Assembly: GCA_937894825.1 (NCBI GenBank)
Contig: CALCQT010000152.1
Location: forward strand, 1 to 12,925
Length of the DNA stretch: 12,925 bases
Direction of reading: 5' to 3'
Source of the DNA: an uncultured Anaerolineaceae bacterium
Lineage (GTDB): Bacteria > Chloroflexota > Anaerolineae > Anaerolineales > Anaerolineaceae
The position numbers and the translations under genes are program-made. Position 1 is the stretch's first letter, and each line of letters begins with the position of its first letter. Positions 6,235-11,396 of the stretch are shown one piece after another. The notes under the pieces are model-generated. The model saw nothing but the letters and a program-made list of their open reading frames with translations, was not told where the DNA came from and did not search any database.

Positions 6235-7329
6235 ATGGGATTCCAGTTACCCGAATATATTGAACCGGATTTTTCCGTCCCCTTCTTCCGGACAGCACCG
6301 GACGTACTGACCCAACCGGTCACAGTCACCGGCGTTGCTCCTGACAATTTCCACGCCACCTCGATCTTTCCGGAATACTTCAAAATCGCTGGCGTGTGGC
6401 GCCTGGCTGAAGAAAGCCGGATGGATTGCTGTGTCCGGGTCAATTCAGAAAACGAGCCGGAAATCATTGAGCCAAGACATTTACAGATTGGAGATAACGT
6501 CGTCCTTGGCCGCACAGAGGACGGCAGTGAAGGAATTTTTCTGCATGTGGATGGGTTTGTGCAAAAGTCAGCTTCCAGAGATCAGTTCGCTTTTCGCAGC
6601 GGGCGCAGCCGTGAAACCGCGTTTTCCAAAGATTATGATCATTTATATGACCTTCTGCACTTCGAAAGAGCGAACGGGAACATTCTGTGGGTGATGGGGC
6701 CGGCCTGCGCATTTGACGCAGACGCACGGAAAGCGATGGAATGGCTGATCGCCAATGGTTATGTGAATGGACTGCTGGCTGGAAACGCGCTCGCTACCCA
6801 CGATCTGGAAGCGGCCATGTTCGGCACTGCACTGGGGCAGAACATTTATTCACAGCAGTCCCATCCCAACGGTCATTACCATCATCTTGATTTGATCAAT
6901 GCGGTAAGAAAAAGTGGTTCAATTGAAAATTTTATTTCTGAGCAGGCCATCGACTCGGGGATTATTTTTTCCTGTCAGAAGTACGGTATCCCGACCGTGC
7001 TGACCGGCTCCATTCGGGATGATGGACCGCTGCCGGATGTGATTGCCGATACCTACCAAGGTCAGGACGCTATGCGCCGATTGGTCCGCCAGGCGACAAC
7101 AGTCATTTGTCTCGCGACACAGCTCCACACCATCGCCACCGGGAATATGACGCCTTCCTACCGGGTTGTCGACGGGACAGTACGTCCGTTGTACATCTAT
7201 TCAGTCGATATCTCCGAATTTGCCGTGAACAAGCTCGGCGACCGCGGCAGTTTGACCGCGACTTCCATCATCACCAATGTGCAGGATTTCGTCGTGATGC
7301 TGTCGAAAGGCCTGAAAACAGAAATATAA
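6235..7329 (+). CDS. TIGR00300 family protein, ornithine cyclodeaminase-like (LOR/SDH-type domain)
   Basis: A 364-residue soluble protein with AGGAG about 9 bases before the ATG. The N-terminal part (residues 18-110) holds QPVTVTGVAPDNFHAT and a beta-rich segment typical of TIGR00300. The C-terminal part is an NAD-binding Rossmann-like domain with GPACAFDADAR (155-165), LLAGNALATHDLEAA (181-195) and GSIRDDGPLPDV (259-269). Related domains form the C-terminal half of the cyanobacterial bifunctional ArgZ/AgrE protein and a methanogen protein reported as an NAD-dependent ornithine cyclodeaminase making proline from ornithine. That activity is therefore the best guess here, inferred from family only. 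Where relatives usually read GPA-hydrophobic-HTG, this protein has CAFDA, so the pocket may differ. It lies 51 bp after the VTT gene and may be the last gene of a pyk-led operon. Confidence 0.87.
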   Translation: MGFQLPEYIEPDFSVPFFRTAPDVLTQPVTVTGVAPDNFHATSIFPEYFKIAGVWRLAEESRMDCCVRVNSENEPEIIEPRHLQIGDNVVLGRTEDGSEGIFLHVDGFVQKSASRDQFAFRSGRSRETAFSKDYDHLYDLLHFERANGNILWVMGPACAFDADARKAMEWLIANGYVNGLLAGNALATHDLEAAMFGTALGQNIYSQQSHPNGHYHHLDLINAVRKSGSIENFISEQAIDSGIIFSCQKYGIPTVLTGSIRDDGPLPDVIADTYQGQDAMRRLVRQATTVICLATQLHTIATGNMTPSYRVVDGTVRPLYIYSVDISEFAVNKLGDRGSLTATSIITNVQDFVVMLSKGLKTEI

Positions 7330-7601: not shown

Positions 7602-7623
7602 GTTATAAAAGGAAGACTTGCAC

Positions 7624-8568
7624 ATGTCAATCACTCATACAATACTTGGAATGCTGAACTGCAAATCATCGACTGGGTATGATTTAAAAAAAATCATGCA
7701 GGACACATCATTTATGCCTTGGTCTGGGAATAATAATCAAATATATAAGGCATTGCTTGAATTGGATGATAACGCCTTTGTGAACAGTGAGCTTTATCCC
7801 CAAGACGGCTCTCCTACCAAAAAGGTATATACGATTACCGGAGCTGGGTTGTCTGAACTAAAAAAATGGGTACAGTCTGCGCCTGAAATGTTTGAAGTTA
7901 AAAAGCCTGTTTTACTTCAACTAGCATGGGCCGATCTGTTGAGCGATGAAGAATTAGATGAATTGCTGGGTAACTATGCGCAGGAACTGAGGGGGCAAAT
8001 ATTTATTGAGCAGACAAAGGTGCAATCCGGCTTTTTTAATCAGGGAAGAACCCCGCGTGAATCTGATATATGGGATTTAATCAATCAAAATATCATCCTT
8101 TCGTATCAGGCAGAATTAGCGTGGGTGGATAGGGCAAGAGAGATTTTATTCCGTCACCGTAATCAAAAGAAAACCGCAAAATCTGCTCCGATAAAGGAGC
8201 CTGAAAAAATGGAATACAAAATTATTGAAAAGAACAATCAAAGATATATCTTGTTAGATCTTATAGGGGAATCTGTGCAGACCGAAGAGGATGCAATTTG
8301 GCTGTTTACGGTTTGCATTGAAAACCAGATTACGCGTTTACTAATTCAGGGCGAAAGATTGTCCGACGACTTTTTGCGCTTGCGAACAGGGATAGCCGGG
8401 ATAGCCTTACAGAAATTTTCTATCTACGGCATCAAGGCCGCCGTTATCCTTGATAAAGAAAGAACCAGGGGAAAGTTCAAAGAATTTTTAGCGGAAAGCA
8501 ATAAAGGACAGGTTTTCAGAAGCTTTCTAACGTTTGAGGAAGCCGAAAATTGGCTGCTTGACAAATAG
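7624..8568 (+). CDS. PadR-family transcriptional regulator fused to a DUF4180 domain
   Basis: A 314-residue protein. Residues 1-75 form a PadR winged helix (MSITHTILGMLNCKSSTGYDLKK, NQIYKALLELD, PTKKVYTITGAGLSELKKW), followed by the helical PadR dimerisation region to about residue 180. A linker of charged residues leads to a C-terminal domain (about 196-314, from MEYKIIEKNNQRYILLDL) resembling DUF4180: DAIWLFTVCIENQ, LLIQGERLSDDFLRLRTGIAG, LQKFSIYGIKAAVI and FLTFEEAENWL. DUF4180 has no firmly known function; a sensory or ligand-binding role is plausible in this fusion. ATG 7624 is chosen over the in-frame TTG at 7618 because it stands 8 bases after AAGGAAG. The hydrolase gene begins 16 bp after the stop. 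Its base composition is visibly more AT-rich than the flanking chromosomal genes, which suggests acquisition by transfer, possibly from a Firmicute. Confidence 0.85.
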   Translation: MSITHTILGMLNCKSSTGYDLKKIMQDTSFMPWSGNNNQIYKALLELDDNAFVNSELYPQDGSPTKKVYTITGAGLSELKKWVQSAPEMFEVKKPVLLQLAWADLLSDEELDELLGNYAQELRGQIFIEQTKVQSGFFNQGRTPRESDIWDLINQNIILSYQAELAWVDRAREILFRHRNQKKTAKSAPIKEPEKMEYKIIEKNNQRYILLDLIGESVQTEEDAIWLFTVCIENQITRLLIQGERLSDDFLRLRTGIAGIALQKFSIYGIKAAVILDKERTRGKFKEFLAESNKGQVFRSFLTFEEAENWLLDK

Positions 8569-9703: not shown

Positions 9704-9732
9704 TTGTCAATCACCCACTCTTCCAGTACAAT
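9704..9732 (+). promoter_or_regulatory. Promoter of the leader of the aromatic-lyase gene
   Basis: TTGTCA (9704-9709), exactly 17 bases, then TACAAT (9727-9732): each hexamer matches consensus in 5 of 6 positions. Transcription would start near 9739, about 12 bases before the small leader ORF and about 140 bases before the end of the terminator. Near-identical direct repeats TTAGCGACTC (9669-9678) and TTAGCGAGTC (9735-9744) bracket it and could be regulator sites. Confidence 0.55.
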
Positions 9733-9750
9733 CATTAGCGAGTCAAAAAA

Positions 9751-9828
9751 ATGAAATCATTATTCGCCAACACCTACGCTTATTATTACGGCAAGCCCAA
9801 TCGAAGCTCTGCCGGATTTTTCGCGTAA
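9751..9828 (+). CDS. Candidate 25-residue tyrosine-rich leader peptide
   Basis: ATG 9751 to TAA 9826-9828 encodes 25 residues with Tyr-Ala-Tyr-Tyr-Tyr at residues 9-13 and Phe-Phe near the end. The only ribosome-binding candidate is a weak GCGAG (9738-9742) 8 bases upstream. It lies between a good promoter and a strong intrinsic terminator, and the gene after the terminator encodes a tyrosine phenol-lyase/tryptophanase-family enzyme. This is the layout of a leader peptide in ribosome-mediated attenuation. The Tyr cluster is the main reason to take such a short ORF seriously. Chance is the main alternative, since TATTATTAC is an AT-rich run. Confidence 0.4.
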   Translation: MKSLFANTYAYYYGKPNRSSAGFFA

Positions 9829-9860
9829 GTACGTAAAACTGAAGATAAAAAGCGATATCC
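9789..9860 (+). promoter_or_regulatory. Possible alternative RNA pairings of an attenuator
   Basis: Just after the tyrosine codons, CGGCAAGC (9789-9796) can pair with GCT-c-TGCCG (9806-9814). GGAT (9814-9817) and TCGC (9821-9824), around the leader stop codon, can pair with ATCC (9857-9860) and GCGA (9852-9855), which form the 5' arm of the terminator. The second pairing would prevent the terminator. A ribosome paused at the Tyr codons would leave 9814-9824 free, while one reaching the stop codon would cover it. This was read by eye; no folding energy was calculated. Confidence 0.35.
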
Positions 9861-9880
9861 GCAGGGATATCGCTTTTTTT
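9847..9880 (+). terminator. Strong intrinsic terminator upstream of the aromatic-lyase gene
   Basis: Positions 9847-9860 pair perfectly with 9865-9878 (14 bp) around a GCAG tetraloop, and the run of seven T residues completes a textbook terminator. No conventional gene ends here on the plus strand. Its likely substrate is therefore the short leader transcript, with readthrough serving the lyase gene that starts 71 bp later. Confidence 0.9.
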
Positions 9881-9925: not shown

Positions 9926-9950
9926 TGTATAGTCAAACTGGGAGGAAATG

Positions 9951-11396
9951 ATGGAAGTGAAATTATCGGATGGCAGAATTATCCCCATGGAAATGCACAA
10001 GATAAAAATTGTGCAACAAACCAACCTGGCTTCGCTTGAAGACCGGAAGAGCGCGATTCGCAATGCGGGGTTTAACACTTTCCTGCTGCGCAGTCATGAC
10101 GTATTTCTGGACATGCTGACAGACAGCGGCACCAACGCCATGAGCGACAACCAGCAGAGTTCCATGCTCGTTTCGGACGATGCCTACGCCGGCTCGGAGA
10201 GTTTTAGCAAACTGGAGAAATCCGTTCAGGATATCCTGGGATTGCAATATGTCATTCCCGCGCATCAGGGACGGGCCTGCGAACATTTGCTGTCTCGTGT
10301 TTTCGTGAAACCAGGCTCCTTTGTCATCACCAACTATCATTTCACCACCACCAAAGCCCATATTAATCTCTACGGAGGAGAAGTTCTTGAATTAATCTCC
10401 GAAGCCGGCCGCGAAACCGCCAGCACCGTGCAATTCAAAGGCAATATGGATCTGGACATGCTGCGAGACGCGATCGAAAAAAATGGGAAAGAAAATATCG
10501 CTTTTATCCGAATGGAGGCGACCACCAATTTGATCGGAGGTCAGCCTTTCTCAATGGAAAACCTCAAAGCAGTCAGCGAAATCGCGAAGAATTTCGGCAT
10601 TATGACCGTTATGGACTGCAGCCTGATCTCTGAAAATGCCTACTTTATCAAGACCCGTGAAGCCGGCTTCGAAGATAAATCGATCAAAGACATTATTCAG
10701 GAGATGGCCGCGCAAGTGGACCTGATCTACATGTCCGGGCGCAAGAGCACCATGGCCCGCGGCGGTCTCATCGCAACAAACAGCCCAAAGATCTATCGCG
10801 AAATTTTACCTTTGGTCCCTGTTTACGAAGGTTTCATCACTTATGGAGGTATGTCTACTAAAGAAATTGAAGCCATCGCGGTCGGCATGCGGGAAATGGT
10901 CGATTTAGATATCGCGGGAAGCGGAGCCGAATTCATTAAATTCTTCGTAAACCGGTTGGAAGAACTTGGCGTACCGGTCGTGACACCTCCCGGCGGTCTC
11001 GGATGTCACATTGACGCCAGCCGTTTTGTACCGCACATCCCCTGGAATGAATACCCGGCTTCGGCGCTGGCTGCGGCCATTTATCTGGTAACCGGCAGCC
11101 GCGGCATGGAACGCGGCAGTCTGTCCATGGATCGTACTCCGGATGGAGAAGAAGTGCCGTCCGATATGGAACTGGTCCGGCTGGCCGTGCCTCGCCGGAC
11201 ATTCACACTGTCTCAACTGGAATTTATGGCCGACCGTATCGCCTGGTTGCATAAGAATCGCGAGCTGATTCAGGGGCTACGCTGGGTGGATGAACCGCCC
11301 GTGCTGCGGTTTTTTATTGGCCGTCTTGATTCCATTGATGGCTGGGAAGATGCCTTGATAAACACTTTCACCGCTGAATTTGGGGATTCCCGCTAA
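9951..11396 (+). CDS. Beta-eliminating lyase, divergent tyrosine phenol-lyase/tryptophanase family member
   Basis: A 481-residue PLP-dependent protein colinear with tyrosine phenol-lyase and tryptophanase, which cleave Tyr or Trp to phenol or indole, pyruvate and ammonia. Two ATGs are adjacent (9948 and 9951); the second is better spaced from GGAGG (9941-9945). Seen: LTDSGTNAMSD, Tyr79 in AYAGSE, Arg108 in HQGR, HFTTT (Thr132), TNLIGGQP (Asn193), Asp222, MSGRK with the presumed PLP Lys265, MERG (Arg388) and LRFF. Thr132 and Arg388 match the tyrosine phenol-lyase pattern; tryptophanase has Asp and a non-Arg residue there. Against this, the conserved Arg after Asp222 is Leu225, the Lys before the PLP lysine is Arg264, and the potassium-site region is shortened. 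It is preceded by a terminator and candidate tyrosine-rich leader. Aromatic substrate is likely, but exact specificity is open. Confidence 0.88.
   Translation: MEVKLSDGRIIPMEMHKIKIVQQTNLASLEDRKSAIRNAGFNTFLLRSHDVFLDMLTDSGTNAMSDNQQSSMLVSDDAYAGSESFSKLEKSVQDILGLQYVIPAHQGRACEHLLSRVFVKPGSFVITNYHFTTTKAHINLYGGEVLELISEAGRETASTVQFKGNMDLDMLRDAIEKNGKENIAFIRMEATTNLIGGQPFSMENLKAVSEIAKNFGIMTVMDCSLISENAYFIKTREAGFEDKSIKDIIQEMAAQVDLIYMSGRKSTMARGGLIATNSPKIYREILPLVPVYEGFITYGGMSTKEIEAIAVGMREMVDLDIAGSGAEFIKFFVNRLEELGVPVVTPPGGLGCHIDASRFVPHIPWNEYPASALAAAIYLVTGSRGMERGSLSMDRTPDGEEVPSDMELVRLAVPRRTFTLSQLEFMADRIAWLHKNRELIQGLRWVDEPPVLRFFIGRLDSIDGWEDALINTFTAEFGDSR

What the first reader, a model, noticed from the sequence alone, without database searches (positions are those of the whole stretch)
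9704..9880. Possible tyrosine-responsive attenuator before an aromatic amino-acid lyase gene
Seen directly: a TTGTCA-N17-TACAAT promoter, a 25-codon ORF with Tyr-Ala-Tyr-Tyr-Tyr at residues 9-13, a pairing option right after those codons, a competing pairing between the leader stop region and the 5' arm of the terminator, and a 14-bp/T7 terminator. Downstream lies a tyrosine phenol-lyase/tryptophanase-family gene. Known: leader-peptide attenuation controls amino-acid biosynthetic operons, and the tna operon uses a leader peptide with Rho. A tyrosine-rich leader with an intrinsic terminator before a lyase of this family is not something I know to be described. One oddity: classical stalling would raise expression when tyrosine is scarce, the reverse of a degradative logic, so the enzyme may run synthetically or the mechanism may differ.
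Basis: partly seen in the sequence, partly recalled or inferred. Interest (0 to 1): 0.72.

Follow-up and report, generated by a model that had tools for sequence, protein, structure and literature searches.

The report
Tyrosine-starvation switch before a lyase gene
A short tyrosine-rich reading frame and a set of competing RNA hairpins sit in front of a gene that looks like a tyrosine-splitting enzyme, in a pattern found in two bacterial phyla that should turn the gene on when tyrosine runs short, which suggests the enzyme helps to supply tyrosine instead of breaking it down.

Summary
The window comes from an Anaerolineaceae (Chloroflexota) draft genome. Of 147 family genomes, 23 carry this lyase subfamily, and 23 of 23 have tyrosine codons followed by a hairpin upstream of it; so do 4 of 23 Bacteroidota-titled loci. 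The window's layout is a textbook ribosome-controlled attenuator: tyrosine codons in arm A, A:B protector, B:C antiterminator, C:D terminator, with some compensatory changes in A:B and B:C. It predicts expression when charged tRNA-Tyr is scarce. Six ordinary lyase paralogs from leader-bearing genomes lack the leader, and the aromatic operon of two sister genomes has its own Phe/Tyr-rich leader. The enzyme keeps the phenol-binding residues of tyrosine phenol-lyase but has Leu in place of Arg217 in 81 of 81 sequences. Best reading: an attenuator for a divergent lyase that makes or salvages tyrosine. Unexpected extra: 7 of 12 relatives with a second leader design open with AUG-GUG-Ser-UUU-UAU and carry their tyrosine run in a stop-free +1 frame; the 5 without UUUUAU carry it in frame 0. 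This points to a +1 frameshift at a hungry tyrosine codon as the sensor. Nothing here was tested at the bench.

The parts
9704..9732 (+). Promoter: -35 TTGTCA (9704-9709), 17-nt spacer, -10 TACAAT (9727-9732); start near 9739 inferred
   Evidence: a promoter just upstream of the leader start with 10-11 of 12 matches in 5 of 6 other genus leaders (L002, L003, L005, L006, L145), the sixth (L004) cut by its contig end
9751..9828 (+). Leader ORF, 25 codons, MKSLFANTYAYYYGKPNRSSAGFFA; no Shine-Dalgarno-like motif within 18 nt
   Evidence: orthologous leader ORFs in L002-L006, L009-L011, L125, L128, L145
9775..9789 (+). Regulatory Tyr codons: TAC 9775-9777, then TAT TAT TAC 9781-9789
   Evidence: a Tyr, a spacer and at least YYY in all 12 type I leaders seen
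9772..9796 (+). Arm A of the protector hairpin, overlapping the Tyr codons
   Evidence: A:B pairs counted
9806..9830 (+). Arm B: pairs with A (protector), or 9809-9824 with C (antiterminator); covers the leader stop codon
9847..9860 (+). Arm C: 5' arm of the terminator; 9852-9864 pairs with B in the antiterminator
9865..9880 (+). Arm D (9865-9878) and U-tract (9874-9880): intrinsic terminator C:D
9948..11396 (+). Divergent tyrosine phenol-lyase/tryptophanase-family gene (start at 9951 equally likely: several relatives begin ATGGAAGT)

Best explanation
9704-9880 is a tyrosine-responsive ribosome-mediated transcription attenuator controlling a divergent lyase of the tyrosine phenol-lyase/tryptophanase family. 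When charged tRNA-Tyr is plentiful the ribosome runs to the stop codon, covers arm B, and C:D ends transcription. When it is scarce the ribosome stops on the Tyr codons and covers arm A; B then pairs with C before D is made, and the gene is read. Without translation A:B forms and C:D terminates. The enzyme therefore most likely works to supply tyrosine (for example phenol + pyruvate + ammonia to tyrosine, the reverse of the textbook direction). Shown: anatomy, conservation, some compensatory changes, absence from the paralogs examined. Inferred: the response to tRNA-Tyr charging, kinetics, enzyme reaction and direction.
For: Tyr run in 23 of 23 family loci and in L145. B:C duplex stronger than 95% of shuffles in 11 of 15 loci scored, including 4 of 4 Bacteroidales. 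In seven genus leaders A:B plus C:D keep 90.5% of cells paired and B:C 81.9%, against 31-47% when slid; cells with double changes exceed shuffles (6 vs mean 2.0, 0 of 500; 3 vs 1.3, 16 of 500). Six paralogs from leader-bearing genomes have no leader. The aromatic operon of two sister genomes has an aromatic-codon leader plus hairpin and T-run. TPL residues Y71, R100, T124, K257 and R381 kept in 80-81 of 81.
Against: Four of 15 loci (L003, L005, L009, L128) have no B:C above shuffles. The number of pairs with double changes is not above shuffles (3, reached by 118 of 500; B:C 1, reached by 439 of 500), and C:D itself has none. At equilibrium C:D wins even with the ribosome stalled in the five loci folded, so the switch must be kinetic. 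The gene is a lyase, and TPL Arg217 is Leu in 81 of 81, so the reaction is not assured. Across 37 family genomes the gene is not tied to loss of AroC (7 of 19 without AroC, 8 of 18 with). Leaders were found in only 4 of 23 Bacteroidota-titled loci, and L044, titled Anaerolineae, shows no Tyr run.
Confidence: 0.8

Rival explanations
1. TnaC-like sensing: the nascent peptide binds free tyrosine and arrests the ribosome, turning on a degradative enzyme when tyrosine is high.
For: The enzyme family is that of tryptophanase, whose E. coli operon is induced by free tryptophan through TnaC arrest (starts of abstracts PMC8429421 and PMC3902921, seen).
Against: A ribosome held at the leader stop in the window would cover B but leave C:D free, which switches the gene off (geometry; footprint recalled). 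C-termini of the type I peptides vary (GFFA, FSRK, GVFA, AVV, GVV, RLRQ). The terminator is intrinsic.
Confidence: 0.08
2. The attenuator works as described, but the enzyme does something other than making tyrosine, for example a different beta-substitution on a scavenged phenol, or recycling amino groups under aromatic starvation.
For: Arg217-to-Leu in 81 of 81 and Lys256-to-Arg in the 13 closest sequences; both NCBIfam equivalog cut-offs (TPL, tryptophanase) missed.
Against: Residues that hold the phenol ring in TPL (T124, R381, F448; roles recalled) are kept in 80-81 of 81.
Confidence: 0.3
3. The Tyr-rich ORF is a chance frame; only promoter and terminator matter.
For: Single promoter and terminator matches are at chance counts.
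Against: Tyr runs in 23 of 23 family loci; 8 of 80 vs 4 of 4115 in controls; recurrence in Bacteroidales.
Confidence: 0.02

Closest known systems
E. coli trp/his/pheA leader attenuators (ribosome-mediated)
   Same: Regulatory codons in a short leader ORF, protector/antiterminator/terminator, on when the amino acid is scarce (logic as in PMC1183508, passages read).
   Different: Tyrosine codons as the regulatory run; a downstream gene of a lyase family usually called degradative; no Shine-Dalgarno-like motif in most leaders; seen in Chloroflexota and Bacteroidota.
TnaC leader of the tryptophanase operon
   Same: Leader peptide before an enzyme of the same PLP family.
   Different: TnaC senses free tryptophan by nascent-chain arrest and induces degradation; here codon starvation and an intrinsic terminator fit.
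Tyrosine phenol-lyase of Citrobacter/Erwinia type
   Same: Best solved-structure matches are TPLs; ring-binding residues kept.
   Different: Leu for Arg217, Arg for Lys256; below the TPL equivalog cut-off (465.5 vs 720.7 bits); regulation by TyrR and tyrosine in enterobacteria is recalled, and no such site was looked for here.
E. coli pheL and ermC leader frameshifting (for the second leader design in relatives)
   Same: Frameshifting in a leader ORF; in ermC a drug-induced shift is used for control (PMC5009743, passages).
   Different: pheL frameshifting is judged incidental there; the same review says no examples were known of starvation ('hungry codon') frameshifting making a trans-frame protein with a starvation function.

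Membership tests
Ribosome-mediated transcription attenuator | Short leader ORF rich in codons of one amino acid | tested here: met
Ribosome-mediated transcription attenuator | Intrinsic terminator between leader ORF and gene | tested here: met
   window; relatives: (type II: no good T-run after the first hairpin in 4 of 12)
Ribosome-mediated transcription attenuator | Antiterminator that excludes the terminator and is freed by stalling | tested here: met
   window and 10 of 14 other loci above shuffles; equilibrium folds favour C:D
Ribosome-mediated transcription attenuator | Readthrough rises when the cognate tRNA is uncharged | not testable with these tools
   needs experiment
Ribosome-mediated transcription attenuator | Downstream gene makes the cognate amino acid | tested here: inconclusive
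   TPL-family gene; ring-binding residues kept, R217 lost
TnaC-type arrest leader | Conserved arrest motif near the peptide C-terminus (definition recalled) | tested here: not met
   type I C-termini vary, compared by eye
T-box or other Rfam leader | Match to an Rfam family | tested here: not met
   0 matches at gathering score in the window
Tyrosine phenol-lyase (TIGR02618 equivalog) | Score above curated cut-off | tested here: not met
   465.5 vs 720.7 bits
Tryptophanase/TPL subfamily NF009709 | Score above curated cut-off | tested here: met
   586 vs 285 bits
Tyrosine phenol-lyase | Ring-binding and PLP residues Y71, R100, T124, K257, R381, F448 (roles recalled) | tested here: met
   80-81 of 81 sequences
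Tyrosine phenol-lyase | Arg217 (PLP-side residue; role recalled) | tested here: not met
   Leu in 81 of 81; Arg in the 12 of 17 paralog loci whose motif was readable

The most novel reading that the evidence does not exclude
In relatives of the window (7 loci, 6 genera of Anaerolineaceae, including the cultured Longilinea arvoryzae) the tyrosine sensor is a starvation-driven +1 ribosomal frameshift. The leader opens AUG-GUG-Ser-UUU-UAU. With tyrosine the ribosome reads UAU and stops 1-6 codons later, far from the terminator. Without it the Phe-tRNA slips on UUUU, the ribosome goes on in the +1 frame, and it halts on the tyrosine run at the foot of a hairpin that begins inside the leader stop codon, so the gene is read.
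Probability: 0.42. Interest if true: 0.86.

Novelty: new variant of a known kind. Interest (0 to 1): 0.63.

Why it matters
It gives a physiological direction to a widespread branch of a textbook degradative enzyme family (relatives at 53-62% identity in many phyla): the control logic says the enzyme is wanted when tyrosine is short, a possible route from phenol to tyrosine. If the second design in relatives is right, it would be a natural use of hungry-codon +1 frameshifting as an amino-acid sensor; a 2016 review (PMC5009743, passages) knew no example of starvation frameshifting making a trans-frame protein with a starvation function and judged leader frameshifting in pheL incidental. Longilinea arvoryzae makes it testable in a cultured strain.

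Tried and rejected
Type II leaders: a pairing between the segment before the Tyr run and the hairpin foot (P0) was not above shuffles in 10 of 12 loci (18 and 12 of 300 in L122 and L123) and was dropped. The motif ATGGTGAGYTTTTAT as a wider regulon mark: 5 hits in 396 class genomes, none before a Tyr run, and 5 hits for the reversed control; none of the seven genomes known to carry the UUUUAU leader was in that sample, so the test is weak. Tyrosine auxotrophy as explanation for the gene's distribution: no association over 37 family genomes of varied completeness; within the genus 4 of 4 genomes without AroC carry the gene (two as contig-edge pieces) against 4 of 10 with it, too few to conclude. 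Trp-rich leaders before the subfamily: no Trp hit looked like a leader (by eye). The same tyrosine motif elsewhere in the window genome: TAYGCNTAYTAYTAY occurs only here. Neighbour genes: ORF maps of 12 loci show no obvious shared arrangement; the neighbours were not compared by sequence. Literature searches showed no title on a leader-peptide attenuator before a tyrosine phenol-lyase; several lists were capped (25 of 143, 20 of 35, 20 of 48, 15 of 32) and only an open-access library was searched. One search stopped with an error after five loci and was redone as with 15 loci (of the leaders then known; type II loci were handled, L145 only in the alignment). L089 and L056 show Tyr runs but were not scored. 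No structure prediction and no search of the large protein database was run.

Full report
What the window holds. The window is one contig of a 3.38-Mb draft genome (G000, 613 contigs, 95.9% complete). The closest named relative found is an uncultured Anaerolineaceae bacterium (85% protein identity), so the source is taken as an Anaerolineaceae species, Chloroflexota. At 9704-9880 lie a promoter, a 25-codon ORF with Tyr at residues 9, 11, 12 and 13, and a 14-bp terminator, followed at 9948 by a gene of the tryptophanase/tyrosine phenol-lyase family. Rfam has no match in the window at gathering score.

The gene. The 482-residue protein passes the cut-off of NCBIfam subfamily NF009709 (586 vs 285 bits) but not the equivalog cut-offs: TPL 465.5 vs 720.7; tryptophanase 390.7 vs 825.8 and 411.1 vs 750. 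Its best solved relatives are tyrosine phenol-lyases. Lys256 reads Arg in the window and in the 13 closest sequences. Residue roles are recalled. The ordinary paralogs (about 40% identical) keep Arg217 in the 12 of 17 loci whose motif could be read. This is a separate branch whose reaction has not been shown here.

Orthologous leaders. Of 147 family genomes, 23 carry the branch at E <= 1e-160. All 23 have a Tyr run upstream. Eleven are of the window type (type I: L001-L006, L009, L010, L011, L125, L128), with peptides such as MRSIPFSTYAYYYYGKPHKRSAGFFV and MQLFSNFYAYYYYGSQFKPAGVFA; a twelfth is on a contig-edge copy (L145). Twelve are of a second type, described below. In the 80 named loci a strict rule finds 8, four Anaerolineae (L031, L038, L054, L055) and four Bacteroidales (L073, L074, L094, L106), against 4 of 4115 control windows. 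The rule misses L041, whose Tyr run has no in-frame start. L044, titled Anaerolineae, has no Tyr run. Of 23 loci titled as Bacteroidota, 4 have the leader. In the 17 paralog loci L014-L030, no ORF of 8-60 codons in the 260 nt upstream has three Tyr codons in a row (L022 has YYFHY), and six paralogs from leader-bearing genomes have no Tyr cluster in 330 nt.

Mutually exclusive pairings. With the ribosome placed on the last Tyr codon, the free segment up to the leader stop pairs with the terminator's 5' arm better than 95% of shuffles in 11 of 15 loci; L003, L005, L009 and L128 do not (mononucleotide shuffles of the upstream segment). In the Bacteroidales L073, L074 and L094 all four arms read plainly: A GGCTTMC, B GTAAGTC, C GGCTTACC, D GGYAAGCC. 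In an alignment of seven genus leaders, A:B plus C:D keep 90.5% of cells paired (31-47% when slid) with six double-change cells (shuffled mean 2.0, 0 of 500), all in A:B; B:C keeps 81.9% (32-45% when slid) with a U-A to G-C change in three sequences (16 of 500). The number of pairs with double changes is not above shuffles, C:D has none, and a structure taken from one of the rows favours itself over slid versions, so this support is moderate. Equilibrium folding of the complete RNA prefers C:D in the five loci done, so the switch must act while D is not yet made, as in known attenuators.

Direction. In the window a ribosome on the Tyr codons covers A and frees B (on); a ribosome at the stop covers B and leaves C:D (off); no ribosome gives A:B and C:D (off). 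The ribosome footprint used is recalled. Facts that favour a supply role: (1) the aromatic operon of two sister genomes has its own leader, MDTLKFFGFYFFFFGFAYYYARKAHLNFTVCRYPEP in G009 and MTTANSFYFYFFFFGFWYFYSKIRLNFAESRSLSRR in G001, followed by a hairpin and T-run; in G009 the first three genes pass Pfam cut-offs for DAHP synthase, prephenate dehydrogenase and 3-dehydroquinate synthase; (2) six ordinary paralogs lack the leader. The window genome itself gave no hit for that DAHP synthase (other types were not sought), for AroB or for AroC, whereas G001, G003, G009 and G010 did, and it keeps the gene and its switch. It does, however, hold a PDT-ACT protein (164 bits) and a weak PDH_N/PDH_C protein (35 and 27 bits, both over their cut-offs), so calling it an aromatic auxotroph would be premature. 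Against a salvage role for auxotrophs: over 37 family genomes the gene is not linked to loss of AroC (7 of 19 vs 8 of 18, counting contig-edge pieces in G008 and G011).

The second leader design. In 12 loci (L007, L008, L012, L013, L120-L124, L126, L127, L129) the leader ends in YYY or YxY plus one codon plus UAG, and a strong hairpin (-19 to -39 kcal/mol) begins within that UAG in 12 of 12. Three to five Ts follow in 8; L008, L120 and L123 have none and L122 a poor run. In 5 loci (L008, L012, L120, L122, L123) an AUG lies in frame with the Tyr codons. In the other 7 the leader begins AUG-GUG-(AGC, AGU or UCU)-UUU-UAU, the length to UAG is 67 or 73 nt (3n+1), frame 0 stops 1-6 codons after the UAU, and the +1 frame that holds the Tyr codons has 0 stops in 128 codons, against 8 of 128 and 7 of 121 in the other two frames. 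The middle segments of the six equal-length leaders are 26-64% identical, yet all seven are multiples of three. The split is complete: UUUUAU with +1, no UUUUAU with frame 0. L121 and L122 are of one genus; L122 lacks the UUUUAU and is one base shorter. In five of the seven a -10 box ends 7-10 nt before the AUG (the -35 boxes are weak), so the RNA may be nearly leaderless. A +1 slip of Phe-tRNA on UUU_U with UAU hungry in the A site explains this; UUU_U occurs as the +1 site in a small minority of release factor 2 genes, and a slow A-site codon favours +1 shifts (PMC5009743, passages). Weak points: the same review rates UUU_U far less slippery than CUU_U; shuffles give P = 0.013 for the open frame alone, with the loci taken as independent although they are related; no further leader with the motif turned up. 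L126 and L127 carry the same leaders as the named loci L041 (Longilinea arvoryzae KOME-1) and L055.

Verdict. Tyrosine-responsive attenuation is very likely; a supply role for the enzyme is the best reading but untested; the frameshift sensor in relatives is the most surprising lead.

Noticed in passing
L130:9489-9685 (+) and L131:10970 downward (-): Phe/Tyr- and Phe/Tyr/Trp-rich leader ORFs with a hairpin and T-run before the aromatic biosynthesis operon of two sister genomes.
   Followed up: partly
L147 (genome G008), about 1200-2499: Remnant of DAHP synthase with stops, closely followed by a long frame whose start looks like AroE (name recalled): the aromatic operon seems deleted in between.
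   Followed up: partly
L139:1698-2576 and L138:509-1498 (-): A PDT-ACT protein and a weak prephenate-dehydrogenase-like protein in the window genome, which gave no hit for DAHP synthase, AroB or AroC; their substrates are unclear.
   Followed up: partly
window 7618-8568: PadR regulator fused to a DUF4180 domain.
   Followed up: no
window 6235-7329: Protein matching a putative nickel-pincer-nucleotide-dependent ornithine cyclodeaminase variant, NF052526.
   Followed up: no
L089 and L056, upstream of the lyase gene: Tyr runs in open frames in a Prolixibacteraceae genome and an unplaced bacterium, not scored as leaders.
   Followed up: no
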